Origin: Chaetoderma sp. LZ-2023a | Taxonomy: Eukaryota > Mollusca > Caudofoveata > Chaetodermatida > Chaetodermatidae | Assembly: GCA_034401795.1 (NCBI GenBank) | Contig: CM067369.1 | Span: forward strand, 136,074,365-136,138,364 | Reading direction: 5' to 3' | Length of the DNA: 64,000 nucleotides | Part shown: in pieces, positions 28,001-34,000 of the stretch | Position numbering within the stretch: the stretch's first letter is position 1 | Layout of the letters: each line of letters starts with the position of its first letter | Position numbers and translations under genes: made by a program | The notes under the pieces: model-generated | The model's database searches: none | Told to the model about the DNA's origin: nothing | Seen by the model: only the letters and a program-made list of their open reading frames with translations

Positions 28001-31000
28001 ATTTCTGACATGCGTTGATGGCGGGCCTACAATTTCACAGTCGGGTAGGTAAACCGATAAATCACACTCATCAGGGACAAAATCGGGAGATTTCCCACAT
28101 CTAGCATTAAAGCCGCCGCAGATTAATACAGAACCCTCTTGAGAAATTGATGCTATGTCATGCTCGAGTGTCGGGAACAGATCGAGATTGTTTCTCATTG
28201 AATAGGTTGTGTTAGGGGGTAGGTAAACAACAGCAATATATATATCTTTGGCCAGTCCAAATGTAAATCTGTCCATTTTAGCCCAACCAATTTCATTAGA
28301 TGATTTAATCTCTTTAATACCATGCTTGAGGGATTCCTTTGCTAAAATACAAATGCCGCCACTGGCATGTCGCGCTTTGCTATGCTTTGGGCGGTCAATT
28401 TGCGAGATTAGTTCAAATCCATTCAAAGAAATATCACTTTTAGTATCAGTATGTGTTTCAGTTAGGCATATTAAATCGTATTTACATAGATCCTCTTTTA
28501 CAGACCGCATATGAAGTTTGTTTACTGGCTAACCAGCAAGAGTGTTCTGTATCAACCCATGTACGTTCCACGAACATATGGACAACGTTGACCTTGCCGA
28601 GTGCATGATAGTGATAGTATTCAGGCGGCGCTATTAGTGATTAAAGGCGTACAGTTAAATCTGTCTATAGCGACCATCTGTTGTTGGGACCAGAAGATGA
28701 TAGTTTTTCAAGACGGGTAATTGCAAAATCACACGTCTTGAAAAAACACTCATCTTATATATTTGAATAGCCACTAATGGTGCGTGTAGTGGTCGCTTTA
28801 GTCAAGTCTACTGCATACGCATACTATAATGGGCGTATACATTCAGGATCCGAATGTATTGTGATAGTAATAATTATACTTGGCATGATATAACTAGTAA
28901 AACTGTACAATTATTTGCATGCCTATATACCAGTGCATAATTATGGTATTAGGCCTTTCTCTTTTATAATAATTTATAATAAAAACATCAGCAGCAAATA
29001 AACTACTAAAAGTCCTCGTATCCCAGCTTTTCAACGGACTTAATTTCGTCACTAACTGCTCTTATAATATTAGACGCGAATACTGCGGTGCCCTCTCTAC
29101 CATTCAAGTGGATGCCATCTGAGAAGAACCGCCTACCAGGTGTACCGTTCCGTAACAGATTGCTGCGATCTATAAAGATTAGGCCACACTTATGCCCTAT
29201 TTCACGTTCCAGTAGAGCGTTAAACAGATTTCTCGTACGTCAAGTACTGGATCAGCGCAAGGGATAAGTTTAGAGACAAGCAATTTGCAGTCAGGCGCGT
29301 TTTTTTAATGGTATGTAAACAGTCTACGTATTCGCTGACGACATCCTCGATACAGGAGTTAGGGGCTCTTAGATTGTTGATAGCCACTTGGAGGATGACA
29401 GCTTCACCTTTTCTGTTTTCGCGCCGATTTTGATAAACATCCTAGCGGGGTCAATATATTTGGTTATCGAATCGCCAAACAGCGCAATGTCGCACTCACG
29501 GTGTTGGTCTACAGATGTGGAATGGCGGCGATTCCCGCGCCGAGTTTCGCGGTGAGATGTATGGTGTCTACTGGTAGATGCATCACTATGATCGACCTCA
29601 ATACACTGCTTAGTATTTCCATTATTTAGATCCTCATATGTATCATACCGTGAGTTATATGTATGGTATCTGTAAGCGTGATTTACTTTTGCAAATGCAT
29701 TTTGATTTCTACTAATATACGGGCCTTTAACACTTTCACTCCTACTACCTTCAACACTTTCCCTAGCTACACCATACATATGATGTCGCTTACTGTTAGG
29801 ACTTCTTGTAATAGCTGGCTTTACACACTGCATATCATTTTTAGCTCCGTTGGTTTTATCGTTGGGGATCGAATAATTTACACTATTGCTTATTCTATTA
29901 TCACTGACGATAGAACACCCCGTAATTGCATCACTTTCAGAGTCTGAAATGTCCTCCAGCTCGAGTCCAGCATATCGGTTTTGCGTTAGAATTTCAGGTT
30001 GTTGCTGCGGAAATGTATGGTGTAATGGTGGGACCGCGTGGTCACCAGTACACGCTTTGCCAGGTATGTTAGTCGTGTCGAGAGGCGCTAAATCACCATA
30101 ATTGCTTACGGGCTTGCTATTCGCATTTGCTAATTCTAATATTTGGAGACGCAATGCAGTGATGTCACTGCTAAGGTTAACATACATTTGTTGGGCGTTA
30201 TTGGTTGATACCGCCATATCTGTTTTCAACTTCGCCATCTCATCTCTAAGACCATGATTTTCCTGTTGAAAATTGCGAATACAAGCGCGAAAAGAAGCAT
30301 CCATTTGCTCGTAGAGTTTAGTTGCATTCGCGTTGTCACACATACGCGTATTAAACTGAGCTAATTTGTCTGCTAAATCAGCGCGTACAGATTGGACAGC
30401 TGACACTAACGGGGCTGTAACCTTAGATACCGCTTTCTCTATATCGTGGTAAGGAACCGAAGATTTGTTGTTCATGTCAGATACACGACTATTCAAGAGT
30501 TTTAGCTCCTCTGATATTGCAATGCACGCACGTGATGTCGTGGTAATTGGTGTTGCAAGTTCTGCCACCGCTTCTTCAACTACAGACGTTACTATTGATA
30601 ACGTTTCTAGATCGGTCGACACTGCCTCGGTCTGGGTACATCTGTTTATAGACTGTTTCCTACCGTTACCCTCAGTGACAAGGTGAGTCATTGTTGCCTT
30701 GCTGTTAATATTATCGTTTATCGATGCACTACTCTCGGTTACGTCGGGAGTATATGATTGTATCGCTGGGCTCGTGTTGGATATACTGCTAGCCGTTAGT
30801 ACGTTAGATGCCGAGTCGGTAGTACTATGTGGTATCTCTGGTGTGTTGACAGTTGTGTCACCACATACGTACTTTAAAGCTCCTTCATTCGCTAGTTTGT
30901 CTGCTGCGGGGTTTCCTGGATCTCCCGTATGACCACTGACACCATTCTAGGGTGATACTGGGCGATATATTGTCTAGTATGCGCCATAAGTCAGAGTTTT

Positions 31001-34000
31001 TTCTCGTATTAAGTTCCCCTGATTTTGTCCATTCGTGATATAAACTGGTCGCACCTTGGATAACGTACTCACTGTCTGTTCTAATAATGAGATTGGATAA
31101 TCCGTTTGCAGTAGCTCGTTTTATCGCAAAAATGGCTGCATATAGTTCTGCCCTATTGTTGGTGGGAACGTTCCCATCGTTCGGTATTGGATGTCCAGCG
31201 TTCCACTCGTGCTCCATTCCGCAGTAATTACCATATCCTGCCTGGGCCTCATATCCACCGTTATTTATACAAGCACCGTCGTCGACATTAACAACTGGTA
31301 CATCCGTTGAGGTTAAACAAGGGTTATTTGATTGCGCCACTGGGGGAACTACTGCGCTAATGTCATCACAATAGTCATTAAGTGTTTTGCCAGAGTCAAT
31401 CTCCTTTGTATAAATCCGTATTTCGTCGTGAACGAAATTGTTTGTGTTCATGTATTCGACAGCCTCGTCTAGTGATGAGTAAGATTTATGTTTGGCACAG
31501 GGAAATTTATTTACAGAATCTTTGCACATGTTCCAGTCCAGAAATATGCCACATTTTTGGCCACAAGATACAGCATAAAATTTGCCTTTATAAGGCTTAG
31601 TTCTGGTTTTTGATTGGTCTGACATGGTGAGGATATTTTCATTAAATTATTTAATGTCAGGTAGGCACCAAAAGTATTCAACACGACATCAACTACCAAC
31701 AACAACTACCGTAGATTAAGATTAACATCTGTCACTTTGAGCAATACAGTTAATCTTTAAACCGTTTGAATTAAGGATCACATTTAAACTTTAGCACATG
31801 TTAAAACCTTAACAACTTTAGAAACTTTAAAAACCTTAACAACTTTAACCACTTCACAAACTTTAAAGATATTGATAATATTAATAACTTTAACGACATC
31901 GCGATTTTCAAAGTTTTAATACTGATAAATCCAATTTAGTAACGTAAGTCGCGTAGAGCGGAGACAAAACACGCCCGCCGCGTGTGAAAAACAACGTAAC
32001 ACGCTTTTCTAACCTCTACTTCGCCCACATACGCCCACATACATCGCTTCGCTGTTCGCGGCCTTACTTGCAAACCCGATATTTCTCGCTATTTTCGCTG
32101 CCGGTTTTCCAATCAGATTTCTGCCTACATCAATCTCGCTGTAAATCTCAAAATAGAGGCGTAGCTTCGTGTCAACATCGAAGGAGAGCTTGCGAGACAC
32201 GAATGTCAATCTATGTGATTGACAGTAAATAGTAGGACGATAATAACCGAGCAATTTTATTAGGCGGTAGTTGACCGACCTCATTTATGAAGTTTCGCGG
32301 ATTTAGCCCAGACACCAAAGCCTGCCAGCACGGGACTCGACAAGTTAGTGGGAGGACGGGACCGTGCAATGGGACGATGCGCCATTACATAATACATATA
32401 ATATCGAATAAAATGTCAGCGTAGGATAACCAAACAAAAGACGAATTTCCAATCTCTCACCCAAGTATATGACATCATAATGAATTACATCATATGTAGA
32501 CTGGCGTCAAATCATATGTATAATGAAGGGCATAGCCAAGTTCGTCATGGATTATTAAAAGTCCGTTATGTGTACGAATTATATGCCTTTATTCTTTAAT
32601 ACACGTTATTTAAAATATTATTACACTAATTTGACTGGGCGCTGTTTCTGCCACATGCAATAGGTTGTTCCTCAAACTCCAGTATTGTCCACCGCGAGCT
32701 TCCCAAGCTCCGTTAGGTTCGTTCTCGTATTTAGTGGTTCGAGATTACGTTCTTTGAGGTCTGATCGCAAAACACTTAGTCAGTTGCTGTTGTGGCATTC
32801 TTTGCATACCTGATACGTGTTAGCACCTACGGCTGTAAACCTTAGAGTACTTTCTGAGCAGGCGTATTTTCTGGCATTCGAAAAACATGTCCGAACATAG
32901 ACCATCGCCACTGCGCTACCACAACCGATAGTGGCTCTGTGATACTTAGTCTGTAGGGTGCTGCATTTGCTATTAGACTGAGTGGCCCGTGATGATTTGT
33001 GATGGCTCACATATGTTTACGGTGACATGCATCAAGTTTGTTCAAGAGGACCTTTGGAACTGCCCAGCTGTTGCACCTTTTTAGCATTATGGAAACACAT
33101 GTGACATTATAGAGTTGCATCTTGACTTTCATGGGGATTTTAGTCCAACGGAACTGAAATGCTATATCGCCTGTGGCATGCGAGTTCCAATGTCGTTAGA
33201 GCTGCAGAGACCTAGGATTCTGCTCTACCTCCACCTCTCAGTGCCCAGGTGAGATGTACCGTCATCATTCATTTCTCTGTTGTCGAATATGTATACGCGA
33301 GTGAACCCTGTTTATCATTAGTGAGAAGAGTCCTGAAATATTGCTGCCTACGGATGCAATGTTTTCCAACTTAATTATATTCAAAAAATTCAACAGAACT
33401 TTTCTTACGCAGTGGTCAAAATTGTACTAATTAACGTGTTTCCTTTTCTGTTTTGGAAACATATTTCTGCTTTTGTCTTAGATACATATTAACTTTTTAG
33501 GACGCCGCGTTGTACAGATATGAGTATGATGATTAGAAAAAATGTAAACCATAGGACCGACCAACAAACCAAGGGACTGGCCGACCGACACCTGCTATCT
33601 GCAAGCCCTAGCTAAAATTAAATGTGACGCGTCTTACTCCAGAAATCTGATACGTCCTCCTGCATCAGCGATTTTCCAAGCATTACCAAAGCCGCCTAGG
33701 ATTTGTGAGCCTTTTATGAGAACAGCCAGCAGGCCAGCGAGCATAATGCCTACCTGAAATAGAAACGAATGTCGAACTAGGATACGCATATCTGTTATGC
33801 TAAGATGATCTTAAAAATCGATGGATTTCATGACCACGTTAACCATTAACGACAATTCGCTGAAGCCGTAAATTCTGTACCAGGTATAACATATTCTATT
33901 GAATATATTCTTAATTCACCTTTCCAGAGTATCCATCGATGATATGACGTCATATGACGTAATACTCAGCTAAGCGGCGTGTAGGATGACGTCATAATCA

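What the first reader, a model, noticed from the sequence alone, without database searches (positions are those of the whole stretch)
29006..31625. LINE ORF1 that begins with a complete RNase H1-like module (hybrid-binding domain plus catalytic domain) and ends with an SGNH esterase
The sequence shows, in one minus-strand ORF upstream of an endonuclease/RT ORF2, an RNase H1 hybrid-binding domain, a DEDD-type RNase H domain (D116, E160, D184 and a final Asp after a one-base frameshift), a helical region and an SGNH hydrolase. Known RNase H-bearing LINE clades (I, R1, LOA, Tad) carry RNase H after the polymerase in ORF2; ORF1 esterases are known for CR1. An N-terminal cellular-type RNase H1 in ORF1 would provide hybrid binding and removal of RNA during second-strand synthesis from a separate polypeptide. 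The ORF2 here has no RNase H after its RT, so the activity seems to have moved to ORF1.
Basis: partly seen in the sequence, partly recalled or inferred. Interest (0 to 1): 0.78.

Follow-up and report, generated by a model that had tools for sequence, protein, structure and literature searches.

The report
LINE carrying RNase H1 in ORF1
A jumping gene in this large genome carries, in its first protein, a complete copy of the cell's RNA-removing enzyme RNase H1, which may let it finish copying itself with less help from the host.

Summary
Window 29006-31625(-) is ORF1 of a decayed LINE (about 23916-31978): RNase H1 hybrid-binding domain, RNase H domain, helical region, broken SGNH-like domain. 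ORF2 (endonuclease, RT) shows no RNase H. It is not a chance neighbour: 17 other copies match the module at 91-97%, 7 copies have one open 912-aa frame, and 8 of 19 loci begin at exactly the same base. Diverged families in the same genome (mostly 30-46% identical) have the module too, often followed by a weak PHD-finger hit. The first three catalytic residues are kept in 42-43 of 43 rows, and between families codon changes show strong purifying selection. The domain resembles cellular RNase H1, not the ORF2-type RNase H of another LINE here, so 'moved from ORF2' is unsupported though not statistically excluded. Recent capture from this host is disfavoured (borderline test). A related lineage has a different ORF1 N-terminus, so ORF1 is modular. 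Most likely ORF1p removes template RNA from RNA:cDNA hybrids (inferred, untested). No paper in my searches describes this layout; Repbase and subscription papers could not be searched. New variant of a known kind.

The parts
23916..31978 (-). whole LINE copy (decayed; about 20 nt short at the 5' end)
   Evidence: blastn against copies L039/L040 and their 3' flanks
29006..31625 (-). ORF1, broken by frame breaks and with a shortened SGNH region
   Evidence: open 912-aa frame in 7 close copies
31452..31583 (-). RNase H1 hybrid-binding domain
   Evidence: PF01693 E 6.5e-15; Trp kept in 34 of 35 copies
30869..31280 (-). RNase H catalytic domain; first D, E and D in one frame, last Asp in the next
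   Evidence: PF00075 E 2.9e-15; frame change seen
29531..30868 (-). linker and helical, coiled-coil-like region
   Evidence: only a weak CCDC90-like hit, below cut-off, at about 30191-30433
29009..29530 (-). SGNH-like domain in pieces (GDSI; VAINNL; SDGIHL)
   Evidence: frames; PF13472 just under cut-off in the intact copy L039
26561..28606 (-). ORF2 5' part: endonuclease and start of RT; one stop in this copy
   Evidence: PF03372 E 1.7e-7; start ATG and stop seen
25043..26560 (-). ORF2 3' part: RT and C-terminal region, no RNase H
   Evidence: PF00078 E 5.1e-23; RNase H profiles negative
23916..25042 (-). 3' UTR with two ~240-bp diverged repeats; two other copies read here end in (TTTCA)n

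Best explanation
This is ORF1 of a non-LTR retrotransposon whose N-terminus is a complete RNase H1 (hybrid-binding domain plus catalytic domain), followed by a coiled-coil-like region and an SGNH-like domain. Shown: the architecture, its recurrence in many copies and several diverged families, conserved catalytic residues, purifying selection between families, and no RNase H found in ORF2. Inferred: ORF1p multimerises on the element RNA, its hybrid-binding domain holds the RNA:cDNA duplex made during target-primed reverse transcription, and its RNase H cuts the template RNA so that the second strand can be made. This would supply in cis what RNase H-less LINEs are reported to borrow from host RNase H2. 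The module was acquired once or a few times, long ago, from a cellular-type RNase H1, and ORF1 N-termini are swapped between related LINEs.
For: Domains. Copies: 17 others at 91-97% over the module, 7 with a 912-aa frame; two copies on different chromosomes 99.6% identical over 7,452 bp; same 5' end exactly in 8 of 19 loci examined and within two bases in 3 more. Diverged families with the module; ORF2 sequence downstream in L042, L043 and L044 but not L041. HBD census: 116 matches, 80 with an RNase H match within 1.5 kb downstream. Catalytic residues in 43 rows (35 distinct copies): D 42, E 43, D 43, His 38, last D 35. Selection: L008 against L038, 140 codons, differences 28/21/83 by codon position. 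Cellular type: a human plus E. coli profile gives about 86-115 bits for full-length unbroken ORF1 domains and 24-32 for the ORF2-type family. Mechanism: PMC6068448 (passages) reports that LINEs without RNase H need host RNase H2 and that RNase H1 overexpression partly rescues.
Against: No activity, expression or retrotransposition was measured. RNase H1 complements only partly in PMC6068448. In the HBD, the second Lys of the human FKKF segment (a hybrid contact, recalled) is Ser in 27 of 35. The last Asp is Gly in one diverged copy (L031/L044) and out of frame or missing in truncated or broken rows, the window's included. A related lineage does without the module. The tree does not exclude a link with ORF2-type RNase H. 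Close copies within family A show no clear constraint (dN/dS 0.33-1.7 on few changes).
Confidence: 0.7

Rival explanations
1. The module is kept mainly for binding: the hybrid-binding domain replaces the RRM or zinc knuckle as the nucleic-acid-binding part of ORF1p, and catalysis is secondary.
For: No RRM or CCHC domain appears in the Pfam listings of these ORF1s; HBD Tyr kept in 32 and Trp in 34 of 35.
Against: First D, E and second D kept in 42, 43 and 43 of 43 rows, the loop His in 38, which binding alone would not require.
Confidence: 0.15
2. The RNase H of ORF1 descends from a LINE ORF2 RNase H that changed place.
For: The AU test does not reject ORF1-type plus ORF2-type as one group (log-likelihood 0.02 lower, p 0.43).
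Against: Sequence is far closer to cellular RNase H1; the ORF2-type rows sit on a branch of 2.6-4.5 changes per column; an HBD is attached. But only one ORF2-type family (8 near-identical rows) was sampled.
Confidence: 0.05
3. Recent capture of this host's own RNase H1 gene.
For: Same two-domain order; holding LINE and host rows together is only borderline disfavoured (p 0.052).
Against: Host and human enzymes group together (97/95); the LINE domains are very diverse and mostly read N-x-D-L-W where human and host read NKEDF/NKDDF.
Confidence: 0.04
4. Chance adjacency: an RNase H1 retrocopy next to a LINE in this window.
For: The window copy is decayed and frame-broken.
Against: 7 copies with one open 912-aa frame, a shared 5' end, several diverged families.
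Confidence: 0.01

Closest known systems
Esterase-type ORF1 (type IV) of CR1, L2 and RTEX elements (PMC3905857, PMC4120745, passages)
   Same: ORF1 before an endonuclease-RT ORF2; SGNH-like domain preceded by a coiled-coil-like region; PHD fingers known in related ORF1 types
   Different: PMC4120745 contains no 'RNase', 'RNH' or 'ribonuclease' and the passages seen of PMC3905857 put no RNase H in ORF1; here a full RNase H1 forms the N-terminus
RNase H-bearing LINEs
   Same: LINE that encodes an RNase H
   Different: There the domain lies with RT in ORF2; here it is in ORF1, of cellular type and with a hybrid-binding domain
Eukaryotic RNase H1 (PDB 6vrd)
   Same: HBD, linker, catalytic domain; about 39% identity over 100 residues for the window's family and up to 47% for others
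   Different: Fused to LINE ORF1 and uninterrupted, whereas the host gene's catalytic part lies in five exon-like pieces (splice sites not checked)
Related LINE lineage in the same genome (L068, L072, L073)
   Same: L068: ORF2 42% identical over 488 residues, SGNH-like domain (PF13472 E 8.9e-5, below cut-off); L072 and L073 share its coiled-coil-like part at 83% and 41%
   Different: L072 and L073 ORF1 begins with another, unnamed domain; no HBD or RNase H found. ORF2 of L072 and L073 was not read

Membership tests
Non-LTR retrotransposon (LINE) | ORF2 with apurinic-type endonuclease and RT | tested here: met
   PF03372 and PF00078; best solved RT relatives are R2 and LINE-1 chains
Non-LTR retrotransposon (LINE) | copies with a defined 5' end, a simple 3' tail, and flanks that differ at the junction | tested here: met
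   tail read in two copies only
Non-LTR retrotransposon (LINE) | target-site duplication | tested here: inconclusive
   one copy compared with an uninterrupted site: a few bases at most, plus 8 extra bases at the 5' junction
RNase H1 | N-terminal hybrid-binding domain | tested here: met
   PF01693
RNase H1 | D-E-D-D catalytic residues | tested here: met
   in the window copy the last Asp is in another frame
RNase H1 | cleaves RNA in RNA:DNA hybrids | not testable with these tools
   needs a bench assay
ORF2-type LINE RNase H | RNase H after RT in ORF2 | tested here: not met
   two RNase H profiles give nothing credible outside ORF1 in the window and L040, L042, L043, L044
Esterase-type ORF1 | SGNH domain | tested here: met
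   window's family: PF13472 E 2.1e-7 (32.1 bits, cut-off 32.9), solved relative lysophospholipase L1 E 0.0018, GDSI / GINN / DxxH blocks
Esterase-type ORF1 | SGNH domain in the diverged families | tested here: inconclusive
   family B only motif-level: 25% to family A, no solved or NCBIfam relative
Esterase-type ORF1 | coiled coil | tested here: inconclusive
   only weak coiled-coil-type Pfam hits; no coiled-coil predictor was run
RTEX, CR1 or L2 clade | RT phylogeny with named clade members | not testable with these tools
   no named LINE set was on hand
RRM or zinc-knuckle ORF1 | RRM or CCHC in ORF1 | tested here: not met
   none in the Pfam listings

The most novel reading that the evidence does not exclude
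A whole clade of LINEs has made its ORF1 coat protein a self-contained RNase H1, so hybrid binding, template RNA removal and (through SGNH) membrane targeting ride on one multimer, freeing the element from host RNase H2.
Probability: 0.4. Interest if true: 0.8.

Novelty: new variant of a known kind. Interest (0 to 1): 0.66.

Why it matters
How LINEs without RNase H clear their template RNA is an open part of target-primed reverse transcription; host RNase H2 is one reported answer (PMC6068448, passages). A LINE that brings a full RNase H1 in ORF1, kept under selection across diverged families beside a related lineage that lacks it, is a natural comparison for testing that step, and shows ORF1 exchanging enzymatic modules as well as binding ones.

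Tried and rejected
Chance adjacency, recent host capture and ORF2 relocation were considered and are ranked under rivals. Searches that led nowhere: IMG/VR scan with the module (no match); prokaryote-genome scan (3 loci; L074 was read and carries a bacterial RNase HI; L075 and L076 not examined); solved relatives of the family B SGNH region (none). C8:24854354 looked like a host exon but reads like the LINE-type L007 sequence. L067 and L070 were fetched to look for RNase H-less relatives; their ORF1 is cut off by other sequence, so they say nothing. L068 alone is rearranged upstream of the coiled-coil-like part, so L072 and L073 were needed. No fold prediction was run: loci from the genome search are not on that tool's stated list, and the window's SGNH region is broken.

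Rows dropped: of 43 ORF1-type rows, the tree used 25 (15 duplicates or near-copies left out by name; L024, L026 and L027 cover under 110 profile positions); one search used 12 of those 25. L053 and L054, fetched as ORF2-type, scored like partial ORF1-type and were left out of trees and residue counts. The 36 HBD matches without an RNase H row were tested only against the 101 rows; some have an RNase H match (for example C9:107811093 and C11:260063713).
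Full report
What is in the window. On the minus strand at 31625-29006 lies one ORF1, broken in this copy. Frame 31646-30885 has the RNase H1 N-terminal (hybrid-binding) domain, PF01693, E 6.5e-15, and RNase H, PF00075, E 2.9e-15. The best solved chain is human RNase H1 across both domains, E 7.8e-24; with the intact module of a close copy, E 8.5e-36. A frame break near the end of the RNase H moves the last Asp to the next frame. 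A helical region follows, then an SGNH-like domain in pieces. About 400 nt downstream comes ORF2: endonuclease (PF03372, E 1.7e-7) and RT (PF00078, E 5.1e-23). Pfam shows no RNase H in the ORF2 frames of the window, L040 and (partial) L042, and two RNase H profiles find nothing credible outside ORF1 in five elements.

It is a mobile unit, not an adjacent insertion. The window lies in an unnamed 2.44-Gb genome. The module protein finds 17 other copies at 91-97% identity, and 7 copies have a 912-aa open frame. In the two read in full, the frame holds HBD, RNase H and a GDSL/SGNH hit of 32.1 and 31.0 bits, just under Pfam's 32.9. These two, on different chromosomes, are 99.6% identical over 7,452 bp. 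Of 19 loci examined, 8 begin with the same bases exactly 391 nt before the ATG and 3 more within two bases; the other 8 are different, truncated or could not be placed. Two copies read at the 3' end finish in (TTTCA)n. One copy sits in a hAT-like repeat of which the window holds an uninterrupted copy at 34984-37464, so the empty site is visible. Of 11 copies with readable 5' flanks, 5 lie in that repeat, 4 of them in the same part but at different points.

The layout is shared by diverged families. The genome search counted 151 matches to the module, many at 28-46% identity, and 116 HBD matches, 80 with an RNase H match within 1.5 kb downstream; all these counts are lower bounds. Of 10 diverged loci scanned by Pfam, 8 (L032, L033, L035, L038, L041-L044) show a PHD-finger hit after the RNase H, above Pfam's cut-off in 1 (L043) and below it in 7; L002 and L007 show none in the frames scanned. 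HBD was found in every one of the 35 distinct copies by a domain profile. ORF2 sequence follows in L042, L043 and L044; L041 runs into other sequence. The window's family shows no PHD hit. The SGNH of family B rests on motifs only: 25% identity to family A, no solved relative.

Function is conserved. In 43 rows (35 distinct copies; 8 are second reads of the same place) the first Asp is kept in 42, Glu in 43, second Asp in 43, loop His in 38 and last Asp in 35; most losses are truncated or frame-broken rows, but L031/L044 (one copy) has Gly. In the HBD, Tyr is kept in 32, Trp in 34 and Cys in 34 of 35; of the two Lys of the human FKKF segment, the first is Lys or Arg in 26 and the second is Ser in 27. 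Between families third codon positions change far more than the others: L008 against L038, 28/21/83 differences over 140 codons, dN 0.18 with dS saturated. Close copies have few changes: dN/dS 0.12-0.17 in family B, 0.33-1.7 in family A, and L008 against L031 no synonymous change, as expected where decay after insertion dominates.

Where the domain comes from. A profile of human and E. coli enzymes gives about 86-115 bits for full-length unbroken ORF1 domains (76 for one with a stop) and 24-32 for the ORF2-type RNase H of another LINE family of this genome. In trees, ORF1-type rows form one group with moderate support (82/81; 85/84 and 87/83). The host's RNase H1 was found as exon-like pieces at C11 167.318-167.336 Mb, with a partial HBD at C11:167370894; it groups with human RNase H1 at 97/95. 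Holding LINE plus host together costs 8.65 log-likelihood units, p 0.052, a borderline result; holding ORF1-type plus ORF2-type together is not rejected, p 0.43. So: RNase H1-type, probably old, donor unknown.

ORF1 is modular. The RT of family A finds relatives at 40-42%. L068 has such an ORF2 and an SGNH-like domain (PF13472 E 8.9e-5, below cut-off) but no HBD or RNase H. Loci that share its coiled-coil-like part, L072 (83%) and L073 (41%), show another N-terminal sequence common to both, with no Pfam family for it and no HBD or RNase H in the 2.2 and 2.0 kb read. In the RT tree L068 and family A fall together without an outgroup and are unresolved with one, so gain and loss of the module are both possible.

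Mechanism. Passages of PMC6068448 report that LINEs without RNase H depend on host RNase H2 and that RNase H1 overexpression rescues partly. PMC2881922 (passages) says some LINE clades have an RNase H that likely removes template RNA and others may displace it. An ORF1-borne RNase H1 would do this from the RNP; that step is inference. PMC3905857 (passages) reports SGNH esterase ORF1s in CR1, RTEX and Penelope-like elements and discusses a membrane role.

Novelty. Nine paper searches listed no paper whose title or abstract start describes RNase H in a LINE ORF1; two searches found no paper at all, and the other listings were mostly capped (for example 20 of 86). Passages of eight papers were seen, none in full. 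Subscription papers and Repbase could not be searched. The clade name (perhaps RTEX, from recalled RT motifs) was not tested.

Noticed in passing
window 34984-37464 (+): Uninterrupted copy of a hAT-like repeat (BED-finger-like reading, judged by eye, in a copy's flank); 5 of 11 LINE copies with readable 5' flanks sit in this repeat, 4 in the same part and orientation, a possible target preference.
   Followed up: partly
L001 (G000:C19:478305-481703): Contig C19 (539 kb) carries a bacterial-type RNase HI beside MobB, P5CR and an APH-family kinase: a bacterial symbiont or contaminant in the assembly.
   Followed up: partly
L072 and L073: A shared, unnamed N-terminal ORF1 sequence (contains MAQGN) with no Pfam match, in the place of HBD-RNase H.
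   Followed up: partly
window 24289-24849: 3' UTR holds two ~240-bp copies of a diverged repeat, about 75-77% alike; close copy L039 lacks about 90 bp between them.
   Followed up: no
G000:C4:99514132-99689296: At least four sites with RNase H1-like matches within about 175 kb, a local cluster.
   Followed up: no
window 20001-22000 and 58001-60000: Strong GC skew (0.51 and 0.36) in two 2-kb stretches.
   Followed up: no
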